Positions 9,939 through 63,358 of a stretch of DNA of 64,000 bases are shown here, in pieces. Position numbers and translations under genes: made by a program. Each line of letters starts with the position of its first letter. Within the stretch, counting starts at the first letter, position 1. The DNA is from Ampullaceana balthica (taxonomy: Eukaryota; Mollusca; Gastropoda; Lymnaeidae). Where the stretch lies: contig CALYLW010000566.1 in the NCBI GenBank assembly GCA_944989445.1, positions 674,641 to 738,640 on the forward strand, given 5' to 3'. The notes below the pieces were generated by a model. That model saw only the letters and a program-made list of their open reading frames with translations. It had not been told where the DNA came from and made no database searches.

Positions 9939-9964
<26 letters not shown>

Positions 9965-11390
9965 TTTAAATATGTTTGTGTGTGTATGAATGTCCTTTAT
10001 AGCTGTCTAAACCATTCACCCGATCATAATGAAACTTTTCAAGACTGTTGAGTATGCTCCCGGGATGGTAACTATCACTTTTTTCAAAATTTAACACTCA
10101 TGGGGCGCCGGGGGCCCATATCGTCATGTTTTGCTTATACGAGCTATATAAAAATTAGTTTAGGCTTTAGCTACTGTGTAAATTATTGGATCTTAACCAA
10201 AATGTGTATATGACAACTTGATAGCCAATATTAAAATACTATAGGGCACTAAACTGCTAATATTCATTCCTTTGGGGCTGGGGGCCCAAAAATTCACATT
10301 TTTTAAGCGTTTAAGATTTTATTCACCATTCAGTCATTAACAATCTTGACAAATTATGACACATGTATCAATTATTATACTAATTGAAATGAACAGATGT
10401 TTTGAACTTTATATCTTGCCCAGAATGGGCTCTGGGACCCTTAATGTCGTTTTTATCTTATATGAGCTATATAAAAAATAGTTTCTACGTTAGCTACTTA
10501 GTAAATGAATAGATCTTCACCAAACTTTGCACACAAAAACTTGGTAGCCTATATTAAAATACTATAGACACTGCACTTCTAATGCCAATATCTTCGTGGC
10601 CGGGGCCCCAAATATCTTTTTTCGTATATGTTTAAGATATTTTTCCTATTTACTTTTTAAAGAGCTTGAGAAATATAGCCACAATAAAAATGAACTAAAA
10701 TGAACAGGTTTTTGAAATTGACCTCTTGCACCGAATGGGCCAGGGCCCCTTAATGCTATTTTCCCCCTATTGTAGGTATATAAAAAGTAGTTTAAGAGTT
10801 AGATATTGAGAAAAAAACTGGATTTTGACAAAACTTAGAATATAAAAACTTAAGAGCCTATATTACTATAGGGCACTCAACTCTTAATTTCCATTCCTTC
10901 GAAAAAGTCTTTTTACTGAACTTTAATCATTGTATTCCCTATTCAATTTTACACGATATTGAGGAATATATATTGAGTACAATAGATAAAAACAACATTA
11001 AGGGCCCCAGGGCCCATTCTGGGCAAGATATAAAGTTCAAAACACCTGTTAATTTCAATTTGTATAATAATGGATACATATGTCATTCTTTGTCAAGATT
11101 GTTAATGACTGAATAGTGAATAAAATCTTAAACGTTTAAAAAATGAGTACAATGGCAATAAAAAAAACTATAATATCACTCATTTTTGGGGCCGGGGCCC
11201 TTAATATCGTTTCTTCTTTCGTACGCTATTTAATTATTAATTTGTTTATCCGTTTGCTATGAAACTTGGATTTTTTTTTCACACTTCCACGAAGATTTCT
11301 TCAGAATTATTTTTAAACATACCACTCATTGGTTTCTTTAAATTTATTCCTTTTTACTTTGATCGTTGCAACGCACGACGGGTCTACTAG
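9939..11390 (+). mobile_element. Helitron-like element F with GGGGCC modules
   Basis: After a short TA array it contains at least three diverged GGGGCC modules like those at 470-3700. The last segment (about 10980-11140) is in opposite orientation to the earlier ones. It ends 'gacgggtctactag' before a T at 11391. Its right end is the exact right border of the insertion that splits D4, so elements A and F either arrived together or one inserted beside the other. No coding sequence is seen. Confidence 0.5.

Positions 11391-14237: not shown

Positions 14238-14299
<62 letters not shown>
14238..14299. repeat. (TA)n microsatellite
   Basis: Pure TA array between the hAT-like element and the 3' terminus of Helitron-like element B. 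Confidence 0.9.
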
Positions 14300-14300
<1 letters not shown>

Positions 14301-16677: not shown

Positions 16678-16682
16678 ATATA

Positions 16683-21955: not shown

Positions 21956-23939
21956 ACAGGAAGCTCTCATAAACATCCATAAATATTTTGCAGTAGAAAT
22001 CATTGCCGTCCTTCTCCTGTGCGTGTGATAATAATTTAAAGGGATGGATGAAAATACTTTCAGATGCGTTGAAAAAATTCCAAGGTTTTGCTCTGTCTCC
22101 GCCCCATAGCCTATGACCTTTAATGTACTCGATGCTGTCATTTTTCACTAGGCCCAAGTGCAGGACGGGCACGGCTATTTCCGTCATAACTTTGTGTTTT
22201 CGGAAAAGTTCGGAAGCTATGATGTAGTCGGCACGCAAAATGTCCGGTATGTAAAAAATATCCGTCCCCCCGTAGAGAATAAAATTTGAGTCAAAGTTGT
22301 ACGAGTAATTTTCTAAAAATCTTTTGGCGAAATGATAAAATTTGTTGTTTGTTTGTTCTGAAAGAGCCAAGGTAGACGCGTTCTTTAGTTCAGAAAATAC
22401 ATTGACTATTGCTTCCTGGCCATAATAGGGATTCCAGTGAAGCCAGGGATAATTGGGTTTTCTCTCGTACAAGTGGAGTTTGGTGAACTGTTTCGGAAAC
22501 CAAAAGTGGTCACGTGGTAGCCTGTGGAGATTCCAAGAATTGAGAAGAACGTCTTCACCAATCTGTAGGTAGCCTCTCACAGGTAGCATCAGTTTCATGG
22601 CATGCGTCACACACTCGTACATGTAGTACCAGCTGTCGGTCATGCCTTCAATATAGGTTACGTAGGTCAGACCTAAGCTGTCAGCGTACTTAACTAATTG
22701 GTCCATTGAAGGACCGCAGTAAACTATATGTTTGAAATACTGTCTGTGTATAAACTCCATATATGGGAGTGTTTTAAACAGACTTTCATAATTTATGACA
22801 ATGACCAGTAGGATGTCTGTTATCTTAGGATTGGACCAATATTTGAGGTACTGGGCGAATGACCAGTTGCTCTGACCACACAGAGACCTGAAACTACCCA
22901 TAACACTTTCGTTGACCGCTTGCTGTGACGCTAGGTTCAAAGTCAAATTGGGAACTCCGTAACGTATTTTGAAAATGTTCTTTTTTTGTGGGCTTCGATC
23001 AAGTCTTGGCGAGGCCCCAAGTTTAACGAGATCACTCTTCCAAGCTTGAATTATTTCAGTAATGTTCATTTCGTCTTTGGGACTCAGTGTGTCGTTATCC
23101 ATACATCTTAGCACTTCCTGAGCTAAAGCGAAAGAGCAGTCGATAAAATCTACCCCGTTTGGGCATTTTAGGTCTGGTAAACATTGATGATAATTGTAAA
23201 GGACAGTTTTGGATGATCTCGAGTTAAATGGAGCGCAAACTTCATTTCCCGGTTTCAGATCACGTGATGTCCGGGATGTCAAGTCGTAGTAAGATAAAGT
23301 CACTAATGACAATTTGCTGAGCTGATGAAGCCACAGGGTCTGGAAAATTTGCGTTACTTATGTGTTGATATCTGGTGGTAGGAACATCCACATGAAAGAG
23401 TTCTTGTAAAAGAGAGTTGGGCCAGTATTCAGTGGAGCAAGGGTCTTAGGGCCAATAATAACTGGCGACCCGTGGGAGATTAAGTTATCGGCCCCTTGCC
23501 TATTCTGGTCACTTTGATGGCAAGTAGTTTTTGACAGCATTACACCTTGGCGTATGCATACGTTATCTATATCGATTACGGAATAGTTGTCAGTGTTTGA
23601 CAAAGATTGAAGCTGTTGTTGATTTGTTAAGTTAAAAAATTGTTGTGGATAAGCGTTCTTGTATCCCCAGTGGTGAAAGGGATTAAATAGTTTTGATCCA
23701 TCGTACAATAGTCCTGATTGGTTTAATTGAGATGCAAAGAATCTGCTGGAAATATTTTCTATGTCTGTGTTACAGTCTGCATCCAAGATGACGTCAGCAC
23801 CTCTCTCTATGGCCAGGAGGTAACCCAATAGTTTAGACGGCACAAGAAGGGCGCTAACTGTGGCTAAATGACTTAGTTTTGCTTGACAGTCCCTCCAGGT
23901 CAGCTGACGGCAATTGTGTTGGCTGTGGAATGTATGCAT
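21956..23939 (-). pseudogene. STELLO/DUF288-like glycosyltransferase exon with one in-frame stop
   Basis: A single minus-strand frame of about 660 codons is interrupted once, by a TAA at 23358-23360. The first part (193 codons from 23939) has KLLGYLLAIERGADVILDAD, FNPFHHWGYKNAYPQQF, IRQGV and GPKTLAPLNTGPTLFYKNSF. These match the order in STELLO/DUF288 Golgi glycosyltransferases (GYLxAIxxGAxxIxDxD, NPxxHxG, P.nsqnTLf). After the stop the frame continues IFQTLWLHQLSKLS, then HRQYFKHIVYCGP and YLQIGEDVLLNSWNL, the second acidic motif region. Many NxS/T sites suit a lumenal enzyme. The end at 21958 is CCT followed by GTAAGT, a consensus splice donor, and AG at 23923-23924 could be an acceptor, so this looks like one large exon of a longer gene. 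Conservation on both sides of the stop suggests a recent pseudogene, an allele or a base error. Substrate is unknown. Confidence 0.65.
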
Positions 23940-23987
23940 TGAATATGAAATTTAAATGGAATTTTTTGAATGCTTAAATTTAGTAAA

Positions 23988-38493: not shown

Positions 38494-38499
38494 ATCCTA
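38494..38499. repeat. Left target-site duplication ATCCTA
   Basis: ATCCTA immediately precedes the AGTAGTTAGGG terminus and recurs at 52827-52832 immediately after the opposite terminus. Bases 2-6 (TCCTA) are the 5' end of a Helitron-like element whose remainder lies at 52828-53639. Confidence 0.85.
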
Positions 38500-41400
38500 A
38501 GTAGTTAGGGTTGGACGTTTCAATTATCATTTTGGTGGCGCGCCACCGTGCCGCCACCACAGCTGTTGCCTTTGCCGGTGGCGGTAATTATGTTAATTAG
38601 AGGTGTCATGTTGTTATACAACATGTTAATTAGTGTTAGACAAGTTAATTAGGGTGTCATGTTGTTACACAACATGTTTATTAGAGGTGTCATAAGTGTC
38701 ATGTTGTTGTACAACATTGTTGTTAATTATGTTAATTAGGATATCATGTTCATTAGAACATGTGGCGGGAAATTCAAATTTTCTGGTGGTTAAAGGGGGA
38801 TACTCGTGTATTTCTATTTAATGGTTACTTCCCCTTTTTAATTTTTTTTTCAATGTATTCAATTATTTAATTGTTAACTTTTTATTTAATTATTTCATAA
38901 TTGAGTGTTCCTCAAATTATTTTTATTTAATTATTGATTGATTCTCAAATTATTTTATTTTATGTATTAAGTGGTCCTAAAATTATATTTTTATATATAT
39001 TTAAAATGACGACACCAAGACCACTAAGACAGGACAAGGTAAAACATAAACAAGTATCGTACAATTTTACTGTTTATTTTTCATATAAATTTTCCGTTTC
39101 AAATTCTGTTTACATGTTATAAATAATACATTTCAGTACAAGTCAGATTTAAGTACAATGCATATAAAATATTTACATCTCATTTAAGTACATTTATGTT
39201 AATTAGACAAGTTAATTAGACGTGTCATGTTGTCATACAACATGTTAATTAGTGTTAGACATGTTCATTAGAGGTGTCATGTTGTTATACAGTATTGTTG
39301 TTAATTAATTATGTTAATTAGGATATCCTATTGTTATATGTAGGCTGTATGGCGGGAAATTCAAATTTTCTAGTGTTTAAAGGGGGATAATCGTGTATTT
39401 AATGGTTACTTCCCCTTTTTTAACTTTTTTCAAAATGTATTCAATTACTTAATTTTTAACTTTTTATTCAATTATTTCATAATTGAGTGTTCCTCAAATT
39501 ATTTTTATTTAATTATTGAGTGGTCTTAAAAAAATTTTTTTAAATTTATTTAAGTATTAAGTGGTTCTCAAGCTATTTTTTTTTAAATTGTATTTTATTT
39601 GTTGAATAGTAGTATTTTAAGGTTCTCAAGGTATTTTATTATTATTTTTTTAAATTGTATTTTATTTGTTGAATGGTCGTATTTAAAAGTTCTCAACCTA
39701 TTTCTATTTATTTTTCATTTAATTATTAAGTGGTTCTCAAGCTATTTTACTATTTTTAACTGTATTTTATTTTTCTAATGGTCATGTTTAAGGGTTTTAA
39801 GCACGGTTTTTATGTGTTTCAGGTTGTTAGGGATGTATTTTATTTGGGGTACTCTGCTGGACAGATGTTGTTGGTGGGGAATTTAATTCAAATAACATAG
39901 TGGGGGCAGTCGATGGTATAAGTTACAATTAGGAAGGGTTTAGTATATTTTATAATTAATTAGACAACTTTCGGAGGGGTGGAAAAAACCGCGGGTTTGG
40001 CTGTTGATCTGATGTTAGCATAGGTGTGGTAGTATACAGTATGTACTAAAACTGACGAAGTGGATTTAGAAGGCGTGGGTTTAGGTTAAAATCAATAGTA
40101 CAGACGACGAGAGGGTTTGGATGGACAGATGTTACCACTGGCTGTATGACCGTTTTAATAAGTTAGTGGGGGTATGGAATGTGGTCCAGGACAAGTAATG
40201 CGTTGTTTTAGGTTAAAATCAATAGTACAAATGAGGAGAGGGGTATGGGCGGGGGCAATTGCAGATGTTGGTGGTTAATTTAAGGTTGTTTTCTTTGTAA
40301 ATTTAAATAATTGTAGTAGTAGTTTTATAGGATTTTGTAAGCTAAAGCAACAGTTTTCATCTTAGTGTGGGGATCTATGTTATGAAAAGGTCTTTTTTTT
40401 TGTTCGTAGTATTTCTTAATTCTAGGATTTCCACTAAGTTTATTCGACAGCTTCAGCCATGCTTCTTATCTTAGTATTGGAATATTTTCTAAGTTTAACG
40501 GTGTTTCCTTTCTTCCTTGTAATAGTTTTTATTGGATTCATAGTTTAAGTCAAGAGGTCTTTTATGTTTCTTTTCTTAACTAGATGTAATCAGCTAGTAG
40601 TAGTAATATTTTATAAGGTTAACCGAGTCATTTTCTTCATGTTTTTATTATTCATTAGAGGTGCTTATCTTAATATCACGGACAGTTTTATAAAGTTCAA
40701 TGGTCTTTTTGGTTGTATTTTTTCATAATTAGATGTGCTCATCTACCCTTGACAATATTTTCTAAGTTGAAGGGTCTTGTTTTTTGTTGTTTCGTAACTA
40801 GAGATTCTCCTCTTAGGGACAGGGACATATTTTTTACTTTCAATGGTCGTTTTGTTTTTGTTACTTACGCATTCTCCTCTTAGGGACAGAGACAGATGTC
40901 TAGTTTCAAGGGGACTCGAGTTTGTTTCTTTTCTTAACTAGAGATTCTCATCTTAGTGTCGGAAATAGTGTTGAAGATCAATGGTCTTTTTTGTTTTTGT
41001 TATTTACATATTCTAATCTTAAGATCGAACACAGTTTTCTAAGTTACATTGTCTTTTTTGATAAGACTATTTTCTTAACTAGAGATTCTCCTCTTAGCGC
41101 AGATCACGATTCTATTAGTTCAATGGTCTTTTTGTTTTTGTTTTTTTGTTACTTACTCATTCTCCTCTTAGAGACAGCGACAGATTTCTAGTTACAAGGG
41201 AGTCATTTTCTTAGTGTTTTTATTTATTTATAAGAGTTAGTTATCTTAATGACGCGGACAGTTTTTATAAAGTTAAACAGTGTTTGTTTGTTTTTCTTTC
41301 TCCATATACTATCGGTACCAAATTTGGTAATTTTTAAAAGGTTGCTTGGCGTATTTTTGCGATAGATATTTTAGTTTGGTTGATCAATATTATTTAAACT

Positions 41401-42726
41401 TGAAGAAATTTTTAATAGTGTCAGGTAGACTTTGATAAAGTGGGTAGGGCTTTATAATTCAACCATTCAACAGGTGTTGTAAATATTTTTTAACTGAGGT
41501 TTTTTTTTATTCGTAAGAGTAGCTTTTTAAAAGTAATTTATTATTCTGTAAATTAATTTTAATTTTTGTAAACAAAGTTATCTGACTATTGTATTTTGTT
41601 GTCTAGTTTTAAGCGAAATTCAAGTGTAAAATAAGTGATCTCTTGTAAATTTTTTGTAAGGAAGGTTATAATTTATGGTTTTGGTTAAGACTTCAAAAAA
41701 TTTAAGTCAGTAGTTGTCAAATTGGTAGGTAATTTTTGAGGAAGGGAAAATATGTGAAAATAGGTGATCGTTGTAGCGAAAGTTTAGGAAGCTATGGTGT
41801 ATCACTAGGGGTTATTACAAGTGATTGGTAAAGATTTACAGGTTTATGTTTATACTTGGAACACTAACGATTAGAGGATGTGGTATCTAGTTCGTCACCA
41901 CATGTTAATAGACGAGAGTGTCTTATTGATCAGGGAAGGGAAACAGATGGGTTAAGCTACAGGCGAAAAGATGCAGGCTTGTGAAATATAAAATAGGTCA
42001 ACTACTCGGTGAGATTCCTATATACAGGTGGTTGTGAAAACTTATTTGTTTGAAGGACAGTAAAGAATTAGAGTGGTTGCAGTAGTTTGTTCGTTTCATC
42101 AAGTCCCTAGGGTTGCTGTTGTATGTTCATTATATGTCTTTCACATGTATACAACAAACCGGTACAATAATCCAAAAAGTTAGCTCCTCGTTTTCCATCT
42201 GTAAGGTCCCATACGCGGGATGGTTTAAACTATTTTTGTTTAAGTAATGTAAGCTTTGAGTTTTAGAGTTATGTTTTACAAATAGGAACTCACACTGTCA
42301 CATGACACGAGTTTTTACAATAAGGCTCTAAGTTTCTCCCCTTTTAGTCTCGTCTTGTTAATAGGTGTGATAGAAAGTCTGCGGTAAAGACTAGTTGTAT
42401 TTAGCTTTATGTGCACAGTCTCCTAGTTCACGCGTTTTCTATGTGAATGCAATTTGTATCTAGCCTCGTATACTAGATTTTATGACTCAAAAACCCAAAT
42501 GTCCAACCCCAGTAGCTAAGTGATAGCCTCCGAGACTTGAATTTACAAAGGCAAGAAAGTCTAAACAGAGTTTATTGATACATAAGACTATAACTATAAT
42601 TTATAAATATAACAAATCAATGTTGTTTATTTTTCCTATTTAATCATATTATGTAGTAGGTCCACAATACTTTGGTTTGATAATTATAAAAACGAACTTT
42701 TAAATAAATTATTAATGAGTTTCTCT

Positions 42727-43656
42727 TTATCTTGACGCAACTACGGTGGCAACGGCACCAAGACCAATAGCAGTAAATAATACACCTTTCCATATCTTCC
42801 CCGCTAAGTCCCCGTGGTCTTGGAAGTACTCAACAAATGTATCCTGAAATTTAGAAATAATACATGTTGTTTGTTGTATTTTAAAAAGGCACCTTAACTT
42901 TATTGTAACTAGCATGGAATGAGCGGCAACTCCTCAATACATGTCAAATTAGGTAGTAAAGAGAAAATAGTGATGATAAGTGAACTCTGTCTTATGACCG
43001 GTCAACTGTTAACATAAATAACTAAAACTATTTAGACACCCCCTCACCTAATTAATTAAAATAATAAAGATAATTACCCATCCACCATTGTCGAGAATCC
43101 ATATACCAAGTTTGTTAGCAACATATTTTCCAACAAATAATCCAATTTTCTTTTGATATTGTTTTGACCTCAAAGAATATGAGTCACTGATTTTATCAGA
43201 TTCTGATTCATCTTTTACGATATTGTCAACGTAGTACTTAGCAAGTCTAGCTCCAAAGGCATAAACAGCAACAATTCTTCCCCACGTAACTTGTCCATCT
43301 TCAAAGATTTCATCAGCAACAATAACAAAAGTTGGAAATGTATTGGTTTCATTAGGTTTTAGTCTACTGACCATGCCTTTAAAAACTAAATCATAACGAT
43401 CTGACAACTCTTTAACAGTTCGCCTTAATGTGCTACAATATCTATTGGGAGGTTTTTTAGAATTTGTTTGGTTAAAATTCAGAACTAAATCTTCTCCCAT
43501 AGACTCTGCATCATGACGAACTTGATCCAACGATGAGTTAGAAAATGTTTGTCTACGATCTTCTCTCACTCGGCCAATATCATTTAGTCCACGGGCTGAT
43601 AAAACACCAAAGCGTTGAGTTACTTGGACAAATAAATTTTTGTTGGAACCGGCCAT
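42727..43656 (-). CDS. Bcl-2 family apoptosis regulator, left-arm copy (2 exons)
   Basis: Exon 1 is 43656-43078 (193 codons) and exon 2 is 42843-42727 (38 codons plus stop), a 231-residue protein. That is close to Bcl-xL in length. The intron has GT (GTAATT) and AG (TTTCAG) borders and is phase 0. Residues 77-90 (LRRTVKELSDRYDL) look like BH3. Residues 116-135 (EIFEDGQVTWGRIVAVYAFG) are BH1, with the key WGR. Exon 1 ends WILDNGGW and exon 2 begins DTFVEYF, so BH2 is split exactly after the Trp, the position of the conserved intron in animal BCL2 and BCL2L1. About 20 C-terminal residues (VLFTAIGLGAVATVVAS, basic ends) form a tail anchor, as used for mitochondrial or ER membranes. The fold and motif set suggest a multidomain family member. 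Pro-survival function is inferred, since Bax-like proteins share BH1-BH3. The gene points outward, away from the loop. Confidence 0.85.
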
Positions 43657-44840
43657 TACTTTATGTTCTATTTCATCAAATGTATTATGTTCTGTGGTTG
43701 AGAAAACCAGACTATTGTGTTCGCGTCCGCTGCTCGTCCGTGGAGTTGGTTTCCCTAGCTAACCGATGGTAATGTTGTGGAGCAACCACCATAACTTGGA
43801 ACGATTTCTGTCTGTGACTCTAGCTTGCTTGAAAAATTGAGAAGAGTGGAAATGCTAATTTATAGTATAATATAGGGGTCGGGAAACATGGCTCCCGAGG
43901 AAGATGTGGATCGACAAAGTCAGTAAGGGTGGTAGAAGATATTCTTGTTAGGGTGATGACAGTTGTGTGCATGGAAGAAGTGCTCAGGTTGTCGACAAGG
44001 GAGAACACATGTATGCCGTTGGAGTAATAGTAACAGACTTGGAATTTGTCGGGGGTGTTTGTAAAAGAGAGTAAGGGAAACGGTATTGTCACGGTCATGA
44101 ACTAAGTAGGAAGGGAGAGCAAAGATACACAGCTCGAGTAAAAGTAAACTTGTAGAAAGACAAACGGTCGTGATAAATAAAACGAGGGTCATGTTTTCCT
44201 TTAAGGGAGGGTTATAATTTTTTTTTCTTTCTAGAACCACATTTAACAACATCACTGTTCCCTCTTTCTTCCTTCGTTCATTTGTGGTTGTAACTCTGTT
44301 TAATTTTGTTGATGTCGTAGACTTCAAGAGGTCTTTCTAAGCATTTTAGAAATCTTATTTTGTCTTGATAATCATTTTTTCGACATGTTGAGATTTCATT
44401 TTTTCTTCTGAGGGTTTTCTTTTAGTTTCCAGAGGAATGATTTTTGAGGAGATGAGACGTAACCGTTTGAATACCAGACATAAGCGCACAGTTCAACGAG
44501 ACATGGATCGCGCAATTTACATGATCGATTTGAGCTATCGTGTATCCACTATGTCCGATTAGAAACCTATCACAGGAGGTACGGTGGGCGCAACCTACCA
44601 GACTAGAAGAATTTTTCGTTCGACTAGTGAAACGGATAAACAAGAACGATGATGATGATGATGATGATGATGAACTTGTCATGTTTTTTAGTTGTAACAC
44701 ATAGGGTCTAACGATGGTTATAAGACATTAACGATAGATGATAATAAGACTGAGGATACACCGTCACTTAGAGAAATTTTGACTTGACTACCCCTCTGGA
44801 TCGGTCACTACGTTGTAGCAAGGGGTTGACTAAAAACAAC
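43657..44840. other. Inner part of left arm; small frames of uncertain status
   Basis: Upstream of the Bcl-2 ATG lies presumed promoter/5' UTR. Minus frames of 135 codons (43920-44327) and 92 codons (44422-44700) have mirror partners of 168 and 93 codons. The first differs because of a small indel near 44010 that changes frame, which argues against conserved coding. On the plus strand, 44437-44562 is a 41-codon frame starting MIFEEMRRNRLNTRHKRTVQ, with regular codon use. An overlapping frame to 44704 ends in an Asp run and ELVMFFSCNT. Neither is recognised. Confidence 0.35.
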
Positions 44841-46481
44841 ACCAACCCCATTTACCTTCTCTTCCACTTTAGATTCAGATATAACCTACATCTTTTTTTC
44901 TTTTCATGCGAAACTTAACCTTGAAATTCCGATTTTCCAAAACACTTTAACCAACAAACATGTCCACATTAAACTTCCCCTCTGTACCAAACCTCTTATC
45001 ATCTTGTAACTCTACCGACTTATAATTCAAGACATCCCTCCTTACGCTGACACCTAACCCTTCTCATCTATTTTCCCTCCCTGCTATTAATTCACAACCT
45101 CCATCCTCATGTTGTCTCCTAACCCTTCTCGTCTCTAGTAATAATGTACAACATCCCTCCTCACATTGAGTCCTAAAGTTTCTCGTGTTGTTACACTCCC
45201 ACCCAAAAATTTACAAACTCTTCACGTTGACTCCTAACCCCTCTCGTGTTGTTCCACTCCCACCCAAAAATTTACAAACTCTTCACGTTGACTCCTAAAC
45301 CGTCTCGTGTTGTTACACTCACTGTTAAAAATTTACAACCTCCATCTTCACGTTGACTCCTAACACGTCTCGTGTTGTTACACTCAACCTCCTTCCTCGC
45401 GTTGACTCCTAATTCTTGTCGTGTTGTTACACTCATTGTTAATAATTTACAAACTCCCTCTTCACGGTGCCTCCTAACCCGTCTCGTGTTGTTACACTCA
45501 ACCACTATCTTCACATTGACTCCTAAACCGTCGCGTGTTGTTACACTCACAGTTAATAATTTATAACCACCCTCCTGAACTTGACTCCTAGTCTTTCACG
45601 ACAAATTTGCTGCTACTTTTAACAAACATCCTTATTCGTATCTACGTATCTCACTCCATCGCTTGATTTCTAAAAAGTTCACCTAGCCCTTAAGTTTTTA
45701 CTTCATCTGTTTTAAACAGATTGAACTTTCCAAAGTTAAACATAAACAGTAACCATACCCTTATCTGTTTGCTTCACTCTTTGACTCTAAAACTCACCCT
45801 ATGTCATTAATTAAAACCCGCCCCACACCTTTCCACTTCCCTAATGCTATTGATTTCCCTCATTCCACTGTCAAGTTAAACAGCTGCGATACCAGCTCAC
45901 CATCTCCGTTAACTTTCTAAATTTCCATACCTCGCTTTTACCACACATTCCATTTATTTACAATTTCAACCAAAACAAAAGGTCATAACTATGCCTCCTT
46001 GTAAGACTGATTCCTTACCCGGACATCACCCAACTACTGTTTTCTCTCTATCTCTCCCAACTACAAAGTGATCCCCTACCTAACCATCACACTTTGTTTT
46101 CTTCCTATCTTTTATCACAACGTTTGCCCTAGTCAAACTAACATCTCACCCTACTACTGTTTTCTCTCTCTCTCTCTCTACCTCTCTGCTAGATATGTTA
46201 TACCTACATCTCACACAAGTTACTTCCCACCTTGTATCATCCTACTACAACCTCCATTTAGTTTTCACCGTACGTCGTACTCCTAAACACCTAACTTTCA
46301 AGACACATTTATTGTTCTATTAAAATCAACCCAACAACTCATCTTCAAATAACTTCACCCATCACGGCTTTGACTTCTTTACATCCAACTCATTTGCTCT
46401 TTTACTTATCCCTACCCCAGCAAAACCCATCCCCTCTAAGGAAATTTATTGTTGACAATACTCTAACTTTTCCCCCACCGT
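44841..46481. other. Unique loop of the palindrome
   Basis: Arm homology stops at 44840 ('gactaaaaacaac') and 46482. The 1641-bp loop has no inverted partner. It contains a tandem array, pyrimidine-rich plus-strand sequence (CTCTCT at about 46166) and short frames without recognised domains. A Maverick core gene would be expected here or in the arms if the element were autonomous; none is seen. Confidence 0.8.
45030..45595. repeat. Degenerate 61-bp tandem repeat in the loop
   Basis: About nine units read 'cttcacgttgactcctaacc' then 'gtctcgtgttgttacactca' then a variable 'aaaatttacaac' end. The 92-codon minus frame over it (SVTTRDGLGVNVK repeated) is a translation of the repeat. Confidence 0.85.
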
Positions 46482-46644
46482 TGTTTTTAGTCAACCCCTT
46501 GCTACAACGTAGTGACCGATCCAGAGGGGTAGTCAAGTCAAAATTTCTCTAAGTGACGGTGTATCCTCAGTCTTATTATCATCTATCGTTAATGTCTTAT
46601 AACCATCGTTAGACCCTATGTGTTACAACTAAAAAACATGACAA

Positions 46645-46675
<31 letters not shown>

Positions 46676-49600
46676 GTTCTTGTTTATCCGTTTCACTAGT
46701 CGAACGAAAAATTCTTCTAGTCTGGTAGGTTGCGCCCACCGTACCTCCTGTGATAGGTTTCTAATCGGACATAGTGGATACACGATAGCTCAAATCGATC
46801 ATGTAAATTGCGCGATCCATGTCTCGTTGAACTGTGCGCTTATGTCTGGTATTCAAACGGTTACGTCTCATCTCCTCAAAAATCATTCCTCTGGAAACTA
46901 AAAGAAAACCCTCAGAAGAAAAAATGAAATCTCAACATGTCGAAAAAATGATTATCAAGACAAAATAAGATTTCTAAAATGCTTAGAAAGACCTCTTGAA
47001 GTCTACGACATCAACAAAATTAAACAGAGTTACAACCACAAATGAACGAAGGAAGAAAGAGGGAACAGTGATGTTGTTAAATGTGGTTCTAGAAAGAAAA
47101 AAAAATTATAACCCTCCCTTAAAGGAAAACATGACCCTCGTTTTATTTATCACGACCGTTTGTCTTTCTACAAGTTTACTTTTACTCGAGCTGTGTATCT
47201 TTGCTCTCCCTTCCTACTTAGTTCATGACCGTGACAATACCGTTTCCCTTACTCTCTTTTACAAACACCCCCGACAAATTCCAAGTCTGTTACTATTACT
47301 CCAACGGCATACATTGTTCTCCCTTGTCGACAACCTGAGCACTTCTTCCATGCACACAACTGTCATCACCCTAACAAGAATATCTTCTACCACCCTTACT
47401 GACTTTGTCGATCCACATCTTCCTCGGGAGCCATGTTTCCCGACCCCTATATTATACTATAAATTAGCATTTCCACTCTTCTCAATTTTTCAAGCAAGCT
47501 AGAGTCACAGACAGAAATCGTTCCAAGTTATGGTGGTTGCTCCACAACATTACCATCGGTTAGCTAGGGAAACCAACTCCACGGACGAGCAGCGGACGCG
47601 AACACAATAGTCTGGTTTTCTCAACCACAGAACATAATACATTTGATGAAATAGAACATAAAGTAATGGCCGGTTCCAACAAAAATTTATTTGTCCAAGT
47701 AACTCAACGCTTTGGTGTTTTATCAGCCCGTGGACTAAATGATATTGGCCGAGTGAGAGAAGATCGTAGACAAACATTTTCTAACTCATCGTTGGATCAA
47801 GTTCGTCATGATGCAGAGTCTATGGGAGAAGATTTAGTTCTGAATTTTAACCAAACAAATTCTAAAAAACCTCCCAATAGATATTGTAGCACATTAAGGC
47901 GAACTGTTAAAGAGTTGTCAGATCGTTATGATTTAGTTTTTAAAGGCATGGTCAGTAGACTAAAACCTAATGAAACCAATACATTTCCAACTTTTGTTAT
48001 TGTTGCTGATGAAATCTTTGAAGATGGACAAGTTACGTGGGGAAGAATTGTTGCTGTTTATGCCTTTGGAGCTAGACTTGCTAAGTACTACGTTGACAAT
48101 ATCGTAAAAGATGAATCAGAATCTGATAAAATCAGTGACTCATATTCTTTGAGGTCAAAACAATATCAAAAGAAAATTGGATTATTTGTTGGAAAATATG
48201 TTGCTAACAAACTTGGTATATGGATTCTCGACAATGGTGGATGGGTAATTATCTTTATTATTTTAATTAATTAGGTGAGGGGGTGTCTAAATAGTTTTAG
48301 TTATTTATGTTAACAGTTGACCGGTCATAAGACAGAGTTCACTTATCATCACTATTTTCTCTTTACTACCTAATTTGACATGTATTGAGGAGTTGCCGCT
48401 CATTCCATGCTAGTTACAATAAAGTTAAGGTGCCTTTTTAAAATACAACAAACAACATGTATTATTTCTAAATTTCAGGATACATTTGTTGAGTACTTCC
48501 AAGACCACGGGGACTTAGCGGGGAAGATATGGAAAGGTGTATTATTTACTGCTATTGGCCTTGGTGCCGTTGCCACCGTAGTTGCGTCAAGATAAAGAGA
48601 AACTCATTAATAATTTATTTAAAAGTTCGTTTTTATAATTATCAAACCAAAGTATTGTGGACCTACTACATAATATGATTAAATAGGAAAAATAAACAAC
48701 ATTGATTTGTTATATTTATAAATTATAGTTATAGTCTTATGTATCAATAAACTCTGTTTAGACTTTCTTGCCTTTGTAAATTCAAGTCTCGGAGGCTATC
48801 ACTTAGCTACTGGGGTTGGACATTTGGGTTTTTGAGTCATAAAATCTAGTATACGAGGCTAGATACAAATTGCATTCACATAGAAAACGCGTGAACTAGG
48901 AGACTGTGCACATAAAGCTAAATACAACTAGTCTTTACCGCAGACTTTCTATCACACCTATTAACAAGACGAGACTAAAAGGGGAGAAACTTAGAGCCTT
49001 ATTGTAAAAACTCGTGTCATGTGACAGTGTGAGTTCCTATTTGTAAAACATAACTCTAAAACTCAAAGCTTACATTACTTAAACAAAAATAGTTTAAACC
49101 ATCCCGCGTATGGACCTTACAGATGGAAAACGAGGCGCTAACTTTTTGGATTATTGTACCGGTTTGTTGTATACATGTGAAAGACATATAATGAACATAC
49201 AACAGCAACCCTAGGGACTTGATGAAACGAACAAACTACTGCAACCACTCTAATTCTTAACTGTCCTTCAAACAAATAAGTTTTCACAACCACCTGTATA
49301 TAGGAATCTCACCGAGTAGTTGACCTATTTTATATTTCACAAGCCTGCATATTTTCGCCTGTAGCTTAACCCATCTGTTTCCCTTCCCTGATCAATAAGA
49401 CACTCTCGTCTATTAACATGTGGTGACGAACTAGATACCACATCCTCTAATCGTTAGTGTTCCAAGTATAAACATAAACCTGTAAATCTCTACCAATCAC
49501 TTGTAATAACCCTCTAGTGATACACTATAGCTTCCTAAACTTTCGCTACAACGATCACCTATTTTCACATATTTTCCCTTCCTCAAAAATTACCTACCAA

Positions 49601-52600
49601 TTTGACAATTACTGACTTAAAATGTTTTGAAGTCTTAACCAAAACCATAAATTATAACCTTCCTTACAAAAAATTTACAAGAGATCACTTATTTTACACT
49701 TGAATTTCGCTTAAAACTAGACAACAAAATACAATAGTCAGATAACTTGTTTACAAAAATTAAAATTAATTTACAGAATAATAAATTACTTTTAAAAAAG
49801 CTACTCTTACGAATAAAAAAAAACCTCAGTTAAAAAATATTTACAACACCTGTTGAATGGTTGAATTATAAAGCCCTACCCACTTTATCAAAGTCTACCT
49901 GACACTATTAAAAATTTCTTCAAGTTTAAATAATATTGATCAACCAAACTAAAATATCTATCGCAAAAATACGCCAAGCAACCTTTTAAAAATTACCAAA
50001 TTTGGTACCGATAGTATATGGAGAAAGAAAAACAAACAAACACTGTTTAACTTTATAAAAACTGTCCGCGTCATTAAGATAACTAACTCTTATAAATAAA
50101 TAAAAACACTAAGAAAATGACTCCCTTGTAACTAGAAATCTGTCGCTGTCTCTAAGAGGAGAATGAGTAAGTAGCAAAAAACAAAAACAAAAAGACCATT
50201 GAACTAATAGAATCGTGATCTGTGCTAAAAGGAGAATCTCTAGTTAAGAAAATAGTCTTATCAAAAAAGACAATGTAACTTAGAAAACTGTGTTCGATCT
50301 TTAAGATTAGAATATGTAAATAACAAAAACACAAAAAGACCATTGATCTTCAACACTATTTCCGACACTAAGATGAGAATCTCTAGTTAAGAAAAGAAAC
50401 AAACTCGAGTCCCCTTGAAACTAGACATCTGTCTCTGTCCCTAAGAGGAGAATGCGTAAGTAACAAAAACAAAACGACCATTGAAAGTAAAAAATATGTC
50501 CCTGTCCCTAAGAGGAGAATCTCTAGTTACGAAACAACAAAAAACAAGACCCTTCAACTTAGAAAATATTGTCAAGGGTAGATGAGCACATCTAATTATG
50601 AAAAAATACAACCAAAAAGACCATTGAACTTTATAAAACTGTCCGTGATATTAAGATAAGCACCTCTAATGAATAATAAAAACATGAAGAAAATGACTCG
50701 GTTAACCTTATAAAATATTACTACAACTAGCTGATCACATCTAGTTAAGAAAAGAAACATAAAAGACCTCTTGACTTAAACTATGAATCCAATAAAAACT
50801 ATTACAAGGAAGAAAGGAAACACCGTTAAACTTAGAAAATATTCCAATACTAAGATAAGAAGCATGGCTGAAGCTGTCGAATAAACTTAGGGGAAATCCT
50901 AGAATTAAGAAATACTACGAACAAAAAAAAAGACCTTTTCATAACATAGATCCCCACACTAAGATGAAAACTGTTGTTTTAGCTTACAAAATCCTATAAA
51001 ACTACTACTACAATTATTTAAATTTACAAAGAAAACAACCTTAAATTAACAACCAACATCTGCAATTGCCCCCGCCCATACCCCTCTCCTCATTTGTACT
51101 ATTGATTTTAACCTAAAACAACGCATTACTTGTCCTGGACCACATTCCATACCCCCACTAACTTATTAAAACGGTCATACAGCCAGTGGTAACATCTGTC
51201 CATCCAAACCCTCTCGTCGTCTGTACTATTGATTTTAACCTAAACCCACGCCTTCTAAATCCACTTCGTCAGTTTTAGTACATACTTTATACTACCACAC
51301 CTATGCTAACATCAGATCAACAGCCAAACCCGCGGTTTTTTCCACCCCTCCGAAAGTTGTCTAATTAATTATAAAATATACTAAACCCTTCCTAATTGTA
51401 ACTTATACCATCGACTGCCCCCACTATGTTATTTGAATTAAATTCCCCACCAACAACATCTGTCCAGCAGAGTACCCCAAATAAAATACATCCCTAACAA
51501 CCTGAAACACATAAAAACCGTGCTTAAAACCCTTAAACATGACCATTAGAAAAATAAAATACAGTTAAAAATAGTAAAATAGCTTGAGAACCACTTAATA
51601 ATTAAATGAAAAATAAATAGAAATAGGTTGAGAACTTTTAAATACGACCATTCAACAAATAAAATACAATTTAAAAAAATAATAATAAAATACCTTGAGA
51701 ACCTTAAAATACTACCATTCAACAAATAAAATACAATTTAAAAAAAAATAGCTTGAGAACCACTTAATACTTAAATAAATTAAAAAAAATATTTTTTAAG
51801 ACCACTCAATAATTAAATAAAAATAATTTGAGGAACACTCAATTATGAAATAATTGAATAAAAAGTTAAAAATTAAGTAATTGAATACATTTTGAAAAAA
51901 GTTAAAAAAGGGGAAGTAACCATTAAATACACGATTATCCCCCTTTAAACACTAGAAAATTTGAATTTCCCGCCATACAGCCTACATATAACAATAGGAT
52001 ATCCTAATTAACATAATTAATTAACAACAATGTTGTATAACAACATGACACCTCTAATGAACATGTCTAACACTAATTAACATGTTGTATGACAACATGA
52101 CACGTCTAATTAACTTGTCTAATTAACAAAAATGTACTTAAATGAGATGTAAATATTTTATATGCATTGTACTTAAATCTGACTTGTACTGAAATGTATT
52201 ATTTATAACATGTAAACAGAATTTGAAACGGAAAATTTATATGAAAAATAAACAGTAAAATTGTACGATACTTGTTTATGTTTTACCTTGTCCTGTCTTA
52301 GTGGTCTTGGTGTCGTCATTTTAAATATATATAAAAATATAATTTTAGGACCACTTAATACATAAAATAAAATAATTTGAGAATCAATCAATAATTAAAT
52401 AAAAATAATTTGAGGAACACTCAATTATGAAATAATTAAATAAAAAGTTAACAATTAAATAATTGAATACATTGAAAAAAAAATTTAAAAAGGGGAAGTA
52501 ACCATTAAATAGAAATACACGAGTATCCCCCTTTAACCACCAGAAAATTTGAATTTCCCGCCACATGTTCTAATGAACATGATATCCTAATTAACATAAT

Positions 52601-52826
52601 TAACAACAATGTTGTACAACAACATGACACTTATGACACCTCTAATGAACATGTTGTGTAACAACATGACACCCTAATTAACTTGTCTAACACTAATTAA
52701 CATGTTGTATAACAACATGACACCTCTAATTAACATAATTACCGCCACCGGCAAAGGCAACAGCTGTGGTGGCGGCACGGTGGCGCGCCACCAAAATGAT
52801 AATCGAAACGTCCAACCCTAACTACT
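46482..52826 (-). repeat. Right arm of the palindrome
   Basis: Inverse of 38500-44840, with the same order of Bcl-2 gene, degenerate tandem zones, A+T-rich zone and 'atgttgtataacaacatgac' hairpins up to the CT-3' terminus. Sampled stretches show scattered differences between arms (single substitutions and homopolymer or short indels), while the Bcl-2 coding region and its intron appear identical. Confidence 0.9.
47666..48595 (+). CDS. Bcl-2 family apoptosis regulator, right-arm copy (2 exons)
   Basis: Exon 1 is 47666-48244 and exon 2 is 48479-48595. The encoded protein is identical to that of the left-arm copy at every residue, with the same BH3-like (77-90), BH1 (116-135), split BH2 (186 onward) and tail anchor. 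The donor is TGG followed by GTAATT and the acceptor 'ctaaatttcag'. If the intron is retained, translation stops after nine extra residues and yields a 202-residue form lacking the second half of BH2 and the anchor. The ATG has G at -3 and +4. The in-frame sequence upstream is open for a stretch without another ATG, so an upstream 5' exon cannot be excluded ('ctcaaccacag' at about 47628 could be an acceptor). It points outward, diverging from the left copy across the loop. Confidence 0.85.
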
Positions 52827-52832
52827 ATCCTA
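52827..52832. repeat. Right target-site duplication ATCCTA
   Basis: Exact copy of 38494-38499 directly after the ACTACT terminus. It continues into 'tataataaaaggcaag' of the interrupted Helitron-like element. Confidence 0.85.
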
Positions 52833-56424: not shown

Positions 56425-57973
56425 AGCCAATATGCTTTTGGCATAACGTAAGGTTTACCTTTCGGTTACATTTTAAGTTCACTCCTGGCGATTCAAACAT
56501 ACGAATCACATAAGTACAGACGAATAATCCAATCTTCGTTTTGATAGAGGACTTGGTATAACGAGGTATGTTATCGCATCTAGGTTCAGAGAAGTGTGTC
56601 TTCTGTAGAAAAACCTCTAACAACACTATTCAAGTTCAAGATAGCAATTTTTTTAGACCAATTTTATACAGCGGTAATACACACTGATTACTACATCTGA
56701 GAAATTGCATCATTTAAGTTTAATATTTTTGGCATGTCACATTGAGATAATATTATAAAAAATTAAATAAAAAGTTGGGCATGTTCTTACCAATAATAAT
56801 ATACATACAATTAAATTTATAAATATAAAAATGAACAAGGACATTTGATCAATGTAGCAAGTAATTAGTATTATTAGTGATGAAAACAATGGCTAATGTT
56901 TGTTAGGTGGCAGACCGTTGTATTTCCCTTACATGCTTCAATAGTACACGGGATTGTTCTATAAACTTACCCCCAAAATAAATAAGGATTGAAAAGAAAC
57001 GATGGGGCTTTCAAAGAAGAAAATGGATTATGTATATGAATCATATGGATTGGCGTAAGATTAAGGCTAATAGGCTTCCGCGTAGTTTGTCTTTCTTATC
57101 TAAAGGGGCAGCTGTGTGACCTTATAAAGTGTACTTTCCATTGATAAGGGCAGGTGTCAATAATATCGCCCAACCCTGGGTGGCCTTAACCCTATAGCTT
57201 AGCCACTGTTAATATGCTTTTGACATACATTACGCTAAACCTGCACAGTATATTTTAAGTCCAATCCATGGATTCAACAGATCTTTTACACAAATAAACC
57301 CAATTCACTTTTTGCAATAAATATTCACCTAAATATTATGAATCTTCTCAATAAAAATCATATCAAATTCGTCCTTAATTTAGGTCATGTATAGACTGAA
57401 TATATACATTGTATATTGTATTAAAATGGCTGGTTTGGAGAGCTAAAGGAATATTATCAAAAGTTATTTAAGGGCAGAAATATGAACTGACTTACATTTT
57501 AAAATTATATTTGGTATGTTTCTAGAACAATGTGGTGGCATGACACATGTTTCGGGTTTAAATTGTAGAGCTGTATTAACTGCATGTTATACGATATTGA
57601 AGTGTCCGTATAAAGACTGATTTTTCAGGTAGTTGACGAAAAGGTAGTGGTCTTTGAAATCGTATAATTTTGATTAAAAATTGCAGCTTTAATCATCATG
57701 ATTTGAAATTTGATGCCATCTTAGTTTATGTTTTTAAGCACTAACAAGTAGCTAAAAATATAAAATAATAATAATTAATTAAGATTCATTATGAATACAA
57801 ATAAAAAATTATCAATTTATTTTAGTGACACAAGTATCTCCCAATGCTTTGCTTCCTCACCACTTGAAAGAAAGATAATAGAAACTTCTTTAATGACACA
57901 AGTATATCTGCCAATGCGTGACTTCGTCACCACTTGAAGAAAAGATAATGGGATCTCCTTTAAAGTATGACTT
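56425..57973 (+). repeat. Left arm of second inverted repeat (1.5 kb)
   Basis: It matches 60580-62125 in reverse with visible substitutions and indels, more diverged than the Bcl-2 palindrome. Shared landmarks include 'tcattaaagaagtttctatt' / its inverse, 'ggtcacacagctgcccctt', 'ccacccagggttgggcgata', and a 70-codon frame (minus at 56414-56626, plus at 61929-62144) whose two versions are similar but not identical. The frame LLEVFLQKTHFSEPRCDN has no recognised family. Two tandem 'gacacaagtat' units occur at the inner end. Confidence 0.85.
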
Positions 57974-57986
57974 ATCATCTGGCCCC

Positions 57987-60385: not shown

Positions 60386-60579
60386 ACGGGTTTGTTTTAT
60401 CTCTGTTTTAATAACGTCGGCGTTTTTCTAAAACCTGTACCAGATTAACAAAGGTCCGCTACAGTTTCATGACGCCCATGTGCAAAGACTCATTTTATTA
60501 TCACATGAATCATAATATAAAAGCCATATCTCAAAAACAATGATGAGAGATTGATCCTATATTGAACTTTATTTAAGTC

Positions 60580-62125
60580 AAACTTTAAAGGAGTTCCCAT
60601 TATCTTTTCTTCAAGTGGTGACGAAGTCACGCATTGGCAGATATACTTGTGTCATTAAAGAAGTTTCTATTATCTTTCTTTCAAGTGGTGAGGAAGCAAA
60701 GCATTGGGAGATACTTGTGTCACTAAAATAAATTGATAATTTTTTATTTGTATTCATAATGAATCTTAATTAATTATTATTATTTTATATTTTTAGCTAC
60801 TTGTTAGTGCTTAAAAACATAAACTAAGATGGCATCAAATTTCAAATAATTATGATTAAAGCTACAATTTTCAATCAAAATTATACAATTTCAAAGAACA
60901 CCACCATTTCGTCAACTACCTGAAAAATCAGTCTTTATACGGACACTTCAATATCGCATGTTGTGCACTTAATGCAGCTCTACAATCTAAACCCGAAGCA
61001 TGTGTCATGCCACCACATTGTTCTAGAAACTTACCAAATATAATTTGAAAATGTAAGGCAGGTCATATTTCTGCCCTTAAATAACTTTTCATATGATTAC
61101 TTTAGCTCTCCAAACCAGCCATTTTAATACAATATACAATGTATATATTCAGTCTATACATAACCTAAATTAAGGACGAATTGGATATGATTTTTATTGA
61201 GATTCATAATATTTAGGTGAATATTTATCGCAAAAAAAGGGGGGGGATGGGTTTATTTGTGTAAAAGATTCATTGAATCCATGGATTGGACTTAAAATAG
61301 ACTGTGCAGGTTTAGCGTAATGTATGTCAAAAGCATATTAACAGTGGCTAAGCTATAGGGTTAAGGCCACCCAGGGTTGGGCGATATTATTGACACCTGC
61401 CCCTATCAATGGAAAGTACACTTTATAAGGTCACACAGCTGCCCCTTTAGATAAAAAAGACAAACTAGGTGGAAACCTATTAGCCTTAATCTTACGCCAT
61501 TCCATATGACTCATATACATAATCCATTTTCTTCTTTGAAAGCCCCATCATTTCTTTTCAATCCTTATTTTCTTTTGGGTGAGTTTATAGAACAATCCCG
61601 TGTACTATTGAAGCATGTAAGGGAAATACAACTGTCTGCCACCTAACAAACATTAGCCATTGTTTTCATCACTAATATTACTAATTACTTGGTGCATTCA
61701 TCAAATGTACCTGTTCATTTTTATATTTATAAATTTAATTGTTTGTATATTATTATTGGTAAGAACCTGCCCGACTTTTAAATTAATTTTTATAATATTA
61801 TCTTAATGTGACATGCCAAACATACTAGTTAAACTTAAATGCTGCGATTTCTCAGATGTAGTAATCAGTGTGTATTATCGCTGTATAAAATTGATCTTAA
61901 AAAAATCTAGCTATCTTGAAATTGAATAGTGTTGCTAGAGGTTTTTCTACAGAAGACACACTTCTCTGAACCTAGATGCGATAACATACATCGTTATACC
62001 AAGTCCTCTATCAAAACGAAGGTTGGATTATTCGTCTGTACTTATGTGATTCGTATGTTTGAATCGCCAGGAGTGAACTTAAAATGTAACCGAAAGGTAA
62101 ACCTTACGTTATACCAAAAGGATAT
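60580..62125 (-). repeat. Right arm of second inverted repeat (1.5 kb)
   Basis: Inverse of 56425-57973. It has a run of eight G at about 61240 where the left arm reads differently, and a slightly different end of the 71-codon plus frame. No target duplication or terminal motif is evident at the outer edges, so the biological boundaries may be further out. Confidence 0.85.
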
Positions 62126-63358
62126 TAGCCTAGGCCGGAATTAGAGCCCCCCCCCACCCCTAGGTTTTATCGATATCATTGAAGCCTGCTCATACCTATG
62201 ATAAGTACCCTTTAAAATTTACAGAGGTGCCTCCTCTCTATAGAAAAATAACCTGTTTTAGCCATAGCCCCACTCTTACGCAATTGCATACCAATCATAT
62301 ACATGATCTTCTTTTTTTTTATCGGGCGTGGTACCGCATAGCGAGACCTGACTGACAGACGGATGTTGTTACTGAGCACCTTATATATCAGAAGATTGTA
62401 AAACTCTGAAGGTTTCAGAGAAACCGTAAATAGAGTGAAGTAACATTTCCGTAAACAAAATGTAAAAAATTTAAATTAAAGTTTAAATAAACAATGAGTG
62501 CATCCCTGCAAAGGTTATTGGGAAGCTATTTTGAAAAATACCTTTCAACTTGGACCAAACAGTAGACTTGGGGTAAATACTATTTCCGCTCACCGGAACC
62601 GTTCAAAAGTTGATGAAAACCAACGTATAGGATCTCATACGTATATATTAAATTTAGTCCACCAAACTGAAGAGGTACTCAAGCTATCATGTTTACACAT
62701 AAACACACACAAACACATACACACAAGATTGCAAAACTTGGGTTTTCCGACTCAGGAATGCGTAAAACGTCTCAAAAGGTTTTAGCTTGTCATTTAAAAA
62801 AAAATTGAACTAAAACTAACTTGACGGTGCTTTTGATAATTAATTAAATTCTCAATGGTTTTAAATTTTTTGTTGAATATTGTTCCTAATATAGATAACA
62901 GGAATCTACTTAACACAAAAAGAGGATCGGGGGCTCTATCAGGAAGTGTCCTAATATATTTTTAGTCAGTTTTTTCCCCCACGTCAGGTTATCACGACCT
63001 GTCAAGTTAGCAAATATAGCTGCTTTACAAGATACAAAGGTTTATGTAGTATTTATTCTGCAACAGGACTTCCGGAATCGGCAGAGGTGAGACGTCCATG
63101 ACCTTTAATGCATTTGGCTGGGGGGGGTTGTCAGTCTGTGTGTCAATCTCATGTATGACACAAACTATTTTTTCTCGGGGATGGGTTTATAAAAAAAATT
63201 TTAAATAAGAAGACCTACTCTTTCTTTCTTTCCAAAACAAGTATCATAAAGAGAGATTTCAATGCCCGGTAAGCAGGTTATTTCGAATTATATTTTTTTC
63301 GAATCAAGGTTTTCCTGGTTTACATAACCTAGTAGATTATAGCAAAAAGTTGAGTTGT
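62126..63358. other. No gene recognised
   Basis: 'cgggcgtggtaccgcatagc' at about 62324 is echoed by 'gagtggccccgcatagcgag' at about 59632, suggesting a shared degenerate repeat. The 95-codon frame at 62498-62785 has no recognised domain. Confidence 0.35.

What the first reader, a model, noticed from the sequence alone, without database searches (positions are those of the whole stretch)
38500..52826. A 14.3-kb palindromic Maverick/Polinton-like element whose cargo is a Bcl-2 family gene
Seen: 5'-AG...CT-3' ends, an exact 6-bp flanking duplication (ATCCTA), 6.3-kb inverted arms, a 1.64-kb unique loop and one intact two-exon Bcl-2 gene per arm. Known: Mavericks/Polintons make 6-bp duplications and have AG/CT-type termini, and several animal DNA viruses carry Bcl-2-like apoptosis inhibitors. 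Inference: this is a non-autonomous relative of Mavericks/adintoviruses in which the terminal repeats have grown to cover almost the whole element and carry an apoptosis regulator. I know of no described element with this architecture.
Basis: partly seen in the sequence, partly recalled or inferred. Interest (0 to 1): 0.93.

Follow-up and report, generated by a model that had tools for sequence, protein, structure and literature searches.

The report
Palindromic Maverick satellites carrying snail Bcl-2
A snail genome holds a family of long mirror-image mobile elements with the ends of virus-like Maverick transposons, and one branch of that family has taken up and multiplied a copy of the snail's own Bcl-2 cell-death gene.

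Summary
Confirmed. Window 38500-52826 is a 14,327-bp element with 99.4%-identical inverted arms, a 1,639-bp loop, an exact ATCCTA duplication and an intact two-exon Bcl-2 gene in each arm. Its ends read AGTAGT...ACTACT, the commonest end motif published for vertebrate Mavericks. In the same 1.1-Gb assembly: 39 further places match the arm end and 39 further places match the loop (capped searches); 10 of 13 elements whose two ends I read have exact 6-bp duplications; an element with related ends encodes integrase-chromodomain, adenovirus-type protease, A32-like ATPase and family-B polymerase; ten more inverted Bcl-2 pairs exist (some broken); and C554 holds the likely donor gene. The cargo is host genomic DNA (intron kept) plus a relic of a Maverick gene, replacing about 380 bp present in seven relatives: one capture, then amplification. 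Best reading: a satellite family mobilised by Mavericks, its palindromes made by snap-back during protein-primed replication. Ends, candidate helper, capture and amplification are shown; mobilisation in trans and snap-back are inferred. Selection on the cargo was not detected among element copies, so an anti-apoptotic benefit is unproven.

The parts
38494..38499 (.). left target-site duplication ATCCTA
38500..44840 (+). left arm; starts AGTAGT
   Evidence: self-BLAST 99.40% to 46480-52826 inverted
38535..39548 (+). outer arm, similar to the end of the gene-bearing Maverick C2252 (38535-39192 and 39203-39548)
   Evidence: 84.7% over 659 and 79.2% over 346 columns to L018
42413..43912 (-). captured cassette, left arm (1,500 bp in place of 377-383 bp)
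   Evidence: break points against 7 of 9 half-elements queried
42452..42570 (+). relic of a Maverick gene start inside the cassette
   Evidence: 119 columns, 80%, E 1e-24, to L019:5621-5504
42727..42843 (-). Bcl-2 exon 2, left arm
43078..43656 (-). Bcl-2 exon 1, left arm
   Evidence: PF00452 E 9.3e-21; coordinates
44841..46479 (+). loop, with 61/114-bp tandem repeats
   Evidence: matches at 40 places of the genome, this one included
46480..52826 (-). right arm; ends ACTACT
47410..48909 (+). captured cassette, right arm (mirrored from the left-arm break points)
47666..48244 (+). Bcl-2 exon 1, right arm
48479..48595 (+). Bcl-2 exon 2, right arm, with stop
52827..52832 (.). right target-site duplication ATCCTA

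Best explanation
The element belongs to a non-autonomous, palindromic Maverick/Polinton satellite family in a pulmonate snail. SHOWN: the family has Maverick ends (AGTAGT) and 6-bp duplications; a Maverick with related ends and genes for integrase, protease, ATPase and polymerase lies in the same genome; one branch holds a genomic fragment with the host's Bcl-2 gene, intron included; the copies read share the same junctions; the gene lies as an inverted pair in eleven elements. INFERRED: proteins of such Mavericks mobilise the satellites in trans by recognising the ends. The palindrome forms when protein-primed strand-displacement synthesis folds back and copies the strand just made, so one arm is a copy of the other and the loop is what lay between the fold-back points. 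The Bcl-2 gene was first carried in a full-length Maverick (a Maverick gene start lies beside it) and then moved into a satellite arm. Its likeliest role was to keep the cell that replicates the element alive; this is the least certain step.
For: Ends and duplications: 10 of 13 elements (9, C1013); motif as in PMC8097293 (passages). Variable number of end triplets (C823 two and three; C2252 three and three), as expected if ends are remade by jumping back (adenovirus case, PMC4974454, passages). Candidate helper C2252: rve, Chromo, Peptidase_C5 and Pox_A32 above Pfam cut-offs; polymerase piece with 1,727 homologues, many listed ones with PF03175. Capture. Amplification: 49 exon-1 matches with 11 inverted pairs; the loop between the genes in 5 of these 11. 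Arms alike within elements: 7 of 7 for the inner 927 bp, 7 of 9 for a 1.4-kb outer stretch. Other palindrome centres in C2981, C976, C734 and C967.
Against: C2252, C174 and C976 lack a 6-bp duplication, so the helper copy itself is not a clean insertion, and its polymerase frame is interrupted. In the young Bcl-2 group only 6 of 11 pairs are sisters in the gene tree. In the outer arm C1013 and C823 do not fit. No element carrying both Maverick genes and Bcl-2 was found; the searches for all integrases and polymerases did not complete. Among intact element copies omega below 1 is not supported (2 x dlnL 0.46). No capsid match for C2252.
Confidence: 0.75

Rival explanations
1. The family is made by Mavericks, but the palindromes arose by ordinary chromosomal recombination (inverted insertion of one element beside another) followed by gene conversion between arms, not by snap-back replication.
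For: The six loop-bearing relatives share the window's loop, as a once-formed palindrome passed on would. The inner 2,077 bp of the window's arms hold 2 of 35 difference events, 1 of 2,000 permutations as extreme, which looks like local conversion. Only 6 of 11 Bcl-2 pairs are sisters.
Against: Several elements have other palindrome centres (C2981, C976, C734, C967), which suggests repeated re-formation, although a later deletion across the centre could give the same.
Confidence: 0.35
2. The Bcl-2 gene is a passenger: captured by chance, amplified with the element, and of no use to it.
For: Among intact element copies omega below 1 is not supported; pooled pairwise ratio 0.75. The protein tree puts nearly all change on the element branch. 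5 of 20 element copies with full-length exon 1 are broken, and 9 further partial or broken loci were not tested for it.
Against: 15 of 20 such copies have an intact CDS and splice sites. Neutral simulation to 37 amino-acid changes gives P(no stop) 0.09, and no gap against P0001. Host comparison ratio 0.49.
Confidence: 0.45
3. A foldback-type or other cut-and-paste DNA transposon unrelated to Mavericks, with convergent ends.
For: The palindromes hold no Maverick gene beyond the 119-bp relic, and long inverted repeats are the mark of foldback elements (recalled).
Against: (AGT)2 ends, 6-bp duplications and 79-85% identity of the outer kilobase to a gene-bearing Maverick.
Confidence: 0.06
4. Assembly artefact or a simple chromosomal inverted duplication of the host Bcl-2 locus.
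For: Inverted haplotype joins can mimic palindromes; no reads were available. C174's repeat runs about 140 bp beyond its ends.
Against: The arms stop exactly at a 6-bp duplication, the structure recurs on many contigs, and the host gene lies elsewhere (C554).
Confidence: 0.03

Closest known systems
Mavericks/Polintons (adintoviruses)
   Same: (AGT)2/(ACT)2 ends, 6-bp duplications (PMC8097293, passages), outer arm similar to a gene-bearing Maverick of the same genome, length 14.3 kb within the 12.7-24.6 kb quoted for intact vertebrate elements
   Different: No Maverick genes beyond a 119-bp relic; inverted arms of 6.3 kb against quoted repeats of 46-1,447 bp; a host Bcl-2 gene with intron in both arms
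Mavericks with host-derived cargo in nematodes (Widen and colleagues; seen only as a passage of a meeting report, PMC10680173)
   Same: A Maverick-type element picks up and multiplies host genes
   Different: There, proteases and kinases in Mavericks; here Bcl-2 in palindromic gene-less satellites
Burro giant retrotransposons of planarians with a BCL2-like motif (PMC6431247, passages)
   Same: Mobile element carrying a Bcl-2-like domain
   Different: LTR retrotransposon polyprotein; here a complete two-exon gene in a DNA element
Defective palindromic genomes of protein-primed viruses such as adenovirus (recalled; not found)
   Same: Both ends kept, middle lost, one end duplicated in inverse orientation
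   Different: Here fixed in the germline as a family with 6-bp duplications
Foldback elements and gene-capturing DNA transposons (recalled)
   Same: Long inverted repeats; captured host DNA
   Different: Maverick ends and a complete intact gene

Membership tests
Maverick/Polinton | (AGT)2 or similar ends in inverted repeats | tested here: met
   AGTAGT at both ends of the window element
Maverick/Polinton | 6-bp target-site duplication | tested here: met
   ATCCTA here; 10 of 13 elements overall
Maverick/Polinton | Family-B polymerase, integrase, protease, ATPase encoded in the element | tested here: not met
   10 ORFs scanned of the 24 listed plus one right-arm ORF: none above a Pfam cut-off; only a 119-bp gene relic. 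So not an autonomous Maverick
Maverick/Polinton | Capsid genes | tested here: not met
   None found in the window element
Non-autonomous Maverick derivative | Ends shared with a gene-bearing Maverick of the same genome | tested here: met
   C2252: 84.7% over 659 and 79.2% over 346 columns; genes
Non-autonomous Maverick derivative | Multi-copy with coinciding borders | tested here: met
   41 end matches, two of them the window's own; 10 of 13 with duplications
Non-autonomous Maverick derivative | Mobilised in trans by Maverick proteins | not testable with these tools
   Needs an integrase assay
Protein-primed defective palindrome | Arms copied from one another at each replication | tested here: inconclusive
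   7 of 7 (inner arm) and 7 of 9 (outer stretch) fit; 6 of 11 Bcl-2 pairs are sisters
Bcl-2 family (cargo) | Bcl-2 domain with BH1/BH2 and tail segment | tested here: met
   PF00452 E 9.3e-21; fold match to A1, Bak and NRZ, mean pLDDT 73.5; BH1 reads TWGR where the other 72 relatives with this stretch mostly read NWGR
Bcl-2 family (cargo) | Survival activity | not testable with these tools
   Needs a cell assay

The most novel reading that the evidence does not exclude
These are germline-fixed defective forms of a Maverick virus of snails: snap-back palindromes made by protein-primed replication, perhaps packaged with a helper, which took the host's Bcl-2 by way of a full-length Maverick and carry two copies of it per element to keep the infected cell alive. 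That would be a satellite of an animal polintovirus with its own host-derived survival gene.
Probability: 0.3. Interest if true: 0.95.

Novelty: new variant of a known kind. Interest (0 to 1): 0.86.

Why it matters
It makes three questions testable in one genome. How Mavericks take up host genes: the likely donor, the junctions, the replaced stretch and a Maverick gene relic can all be read. Whether Mavericks have gene-less satellites: a family with the same ends and a gene-bearing candidate helper lie side by side. Whether animal Mavericks replicate by protein priming with fold-back errors: doubled and tripled AGT ends and arms nearly identical within most elements fit that. The Bcl-2 cargo allows a direct test of whether such an element profits from keeping its cell alive.

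Tried and rejected
IMG/VR searches with the Bcl-2 protein, a 12-row gastropod-led Bcl-2 alignment, the terminal 17-mer and the C2252 integrase: no relative. Phage records by tblastn: no match. The terminal 17-mer hit 7 contigs of genome contigs, no more than chance would give in 257 Gb by my estimate (about 30); set aside. Rfam and tRNA scans: none. Capsid candidate ORF of C2252 against PDB (only antibody matches at E 0.23 and above) and PHROGs: nothing. Ends of other Bcl-2 elements: 20 short pieces taken at predicted places; both ends found for C2981 and C976, one for C260, none for the other seven; a second try for C1503 missed again. Codon models: omega below 1 not supported among element copies; other model settings were run, but no omega value was printed, and I did not check separately that the brace notation fixed omega at 1. 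Literature: 10 answered searches; no listed title or abstract start describes palindromic Mavericks or Bcl-2 in Mavericks or adintoviruses. The library is open-access only; two papers sought by DOI, meant as the original Polinton and adintovirus papers, are not held.
Full report
OBSERVATION. The window has 34.7% G+C. Self-comparison gives an inverted repeat 38500-44840 / 52826-46480 of 6,351 columns at 99.40% identity with 24 mismatches, around a 1,639-bp loop, with ATCCTA on both sides. Of 35 arm-to-arm difference events, 2 fall in the inner 2,077 bp; 1 of 2,000 permutations is as extreme. Each arm has a two-exon Bcl-2 gene (PF00452, E 9.3e-21) with a 234-bp GT-AG intron after the GGW of BH2 (the intron site of vertebrate Bcl-2, recalled) and a 231-aa product. 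The two copies differ at one synonymous base. Ten other ORFs were scanned: no hit above a Pfam cut-off (one search lists 24 ORFs of 55 aa or more for left arm and loop; one of the ten is from the right arm).

HOST. The protein search returned 73 Bcl-2 relatives; the nearest named ones are gastropod (Physella acuta 71%, Biomphalaria glabrata 71%), and two unnamed ones are nearer (P0001 84%; P0002 99% over 84% of the query, running into the same intron). In a tree of 74 proteins the window and P0002 sit on a stem of 0.25 beside P0001, whose own branch is 0: the element copy changed fast, the P0001-type gene hardly. The window is G000:C566:674641-738640 of a 1.097-Gb assembly.

FAMILY. The terminal 401 bp match 41 places, two of them the window's own ends (40 of 325 candidates scored). 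That list holds 12 other inverted pairs; I fetched 10 whole, later only the ends of C2981, and never C843. Six of the ten (C35, C13, C823, C174, C123, C338) have inverted arms of about 5.0-6.1 kb at 96.8-99.8% (in two aligned pieces in C823 and C123) and match the window's loop. C552, C1013 and C570 are shorter or lack the loop; C2252 has a 481-bp repeat. None of the ten has Bcl-2 by tblastn at E 1e-3 (all). The loop matches 45 rows, which I count as 40 places including the window (40 of 93 candidates scored).

ENDS. Of 13 elements read at both ends (window, the ten, C976, C2981), an automatic scan found exact 6-bp duplications beside AGTAGT ends in 9, and C1013, which the scan's motif missed, has GACATC: 10 of 13. 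C2252, C174 and C976 have none. C823 has two AGT at one end and three at the other; C2252 three at both. Vertebrate Mavericks most often end in (AGT)2//(ACT)2, have perfect 6-bp duplications when intact, and repeats of 46-1,447 bp (PMC8097293, passages). In adenovirus the doubled end triplet serves the jumping-back step of protein priming (PMC4974454, passages).

CANDIDATE HELPER. C2252 (L018, L019) encodes an integrase with chromodomain, an adenovirus-type protease and an A32-like ATPase, each above the Pfam cut-off. Two abutting ORFs in one frame form the polymerase, so that frame is interrupted in this copy. Pfam, PDB and PHROGs showed only zinc fingers in the long piece and Pfam and PHROGs nothing in the short one, but residues 480-1078 have 1,727 homologues at E 1e-3 or better; many of the 120 listed bear PF03175 and the named ones are gastropod. 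The palindromes match C2252 only over the outer kilobase (84.7% over 659 columns, 79.2% over 346, and shorter repeats of these) and in the relic below.

CAPTURE. Of nine half-elements queried, seven, one from each of seven elements, could be read on both sides: the window departs at 42412 and resumes at 43913 (six) or 43914 (one), and they hold 377-383 bp there. The 1,500-bp cassette aligns from position 246 to 1226 with the host locus C554 at 81.9% over 1,073 columns, through the intron, with two short further matches downstream. So it was taken as genomic DNA. Its first 245 bp, upstream of the gene, find no convincing match in the 1.5 kb of host DNA held. Beyond the gene, window 42452-42570 is 80% identical to the start of the C2252 gene that precedes the integrase (E 1e-24). 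I read this as a trace of an earlier stay in a full-length Maverick (inference).

AMPLIFICATION. Exon 1 matches 49 places; counting the window there are 11 inverted pairs, all with genes pointing outward, some copies broken or in pieces. Of the 30 loci held, one is the host gene; of the other 29 (two are the window's arms) all 29 run across the 42412 junction and 28 across 43912 (C1771 is cut short): one capture. The loop lies between the genes in 5 of the 11 pairs (C566, C559, C66, C1503, C265) as far as the capped loop search shows. C2981 has AGTAGT ends and a TCCGCG duplication. C559 has a long unrelated insert, about 11 kb, in one arm. C2981, C976, C734 and C967 have other palindrome centres.

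MECHANISM. In the inner 927 bp, 7 of 7 elements with both arms have arms 0-0.9% apart, the nearest other element being 0.1-4.4% away; in a 1.4-kb outer stretch 7 of 9 fit, and C1013 and C823 do not, perhaps through my extraction. In the young Bcl-2 group 6 of 11 pairs are sisters in the gene tree; the window, C1503, C260, C265 and C937 are not, mostly on very short branches. The loop's base skew runs on into the right arm, not the left, as if loop plus right arm were the original. I take snap-back during protein-primed synthesis as likeliest, with recombination plus gene conversion as a serious rival.

CARGO. Host to window copy, exon 1: dS 0.133, dN 0.065, ratio 0.49. As the tree puts nearly all protein change on the element branch, the ratio there may approach 1 if silent changes are shared evenly. 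Among intact element copies omega below 1 is not supported (2 x dlnL 0.46; with the host 7.2); the pooled pairwise ratio is 0.75. Of 20 element copies chosen for full-length exon 1, 15 have an intact CDS and splice sites; 9 other partial or broken loci were not tested. A neutral simulation to 37 amino-acid changes gives P(no stop) 0.09. The model of residues 1-193 (mean pLDDT 73.5; residues 1-38 low) matches A1, Bak and NRZ structures. A Bcl-2 fold is likely; a benefit to the element is not shown.

VERDICT. The finding is real and its main interpretation holds. It is a new variant of a known kind: a palindromic Maverick satellite with a captured and amplified host Bcl-2 gene. My ten literature searches, in an open-access library, listed no such element.

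Noticed in passing
G000:C174:393900-406700 (L030, L031): The inverted repeat runs about 140 bp beyond the AGTAGT ends into both flanks, and the 6-bp flanks are inverse, not direct, copies (TACATA / TATGTA). Palindrome growth into host DNA, or an assembly join.
   Followed up: partly
G000:C823:273300-287300 (L026, L027): (AGT)2 at one end and (AGT)3 at the other beside the same AGTAAT duplication.
   Followed up: partly
G000:C976 ends (L080, L081): The two ends differ from one another inside the first 40 bp and lack a shared duplication, as if recombinant.
   Followed up: no
G000:C2252:39800-54400 (L018, L019): The flanks share 17 bp in direct orientation instead of a 6-bp duplication.
   Followed up: no
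P0022, P0023 (unnamed proteins, nearest Physella acuta P0003): Bcl-2 copies with exon 1 and exon 2 joined, an altered tail and FGARLAKYY, which the window copy also has where most relatives read FAARLAKYY. Second, separate copying of Bcl-2, or transcripts.
   Followed up: no
window 7383-9973 and 14259-16680: Another pair of inverted copies (92-93%) around TTG-rich repeats.
   Followed up: no
window 56426-57974 and 60574-62129: Inverted copies of about 1.55 kb at 94%.
   Followed up: no
window 2682-3290 (+): Open frame that looks like a reverse-transcriptase fragment by eye; not tested.
   Followed up: no
window 21957-23951 (-): Two long open frames (467 and 197 aa) that look like a STELLO/DUF288-type host protein from memory; not tested.
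   Followed up: no
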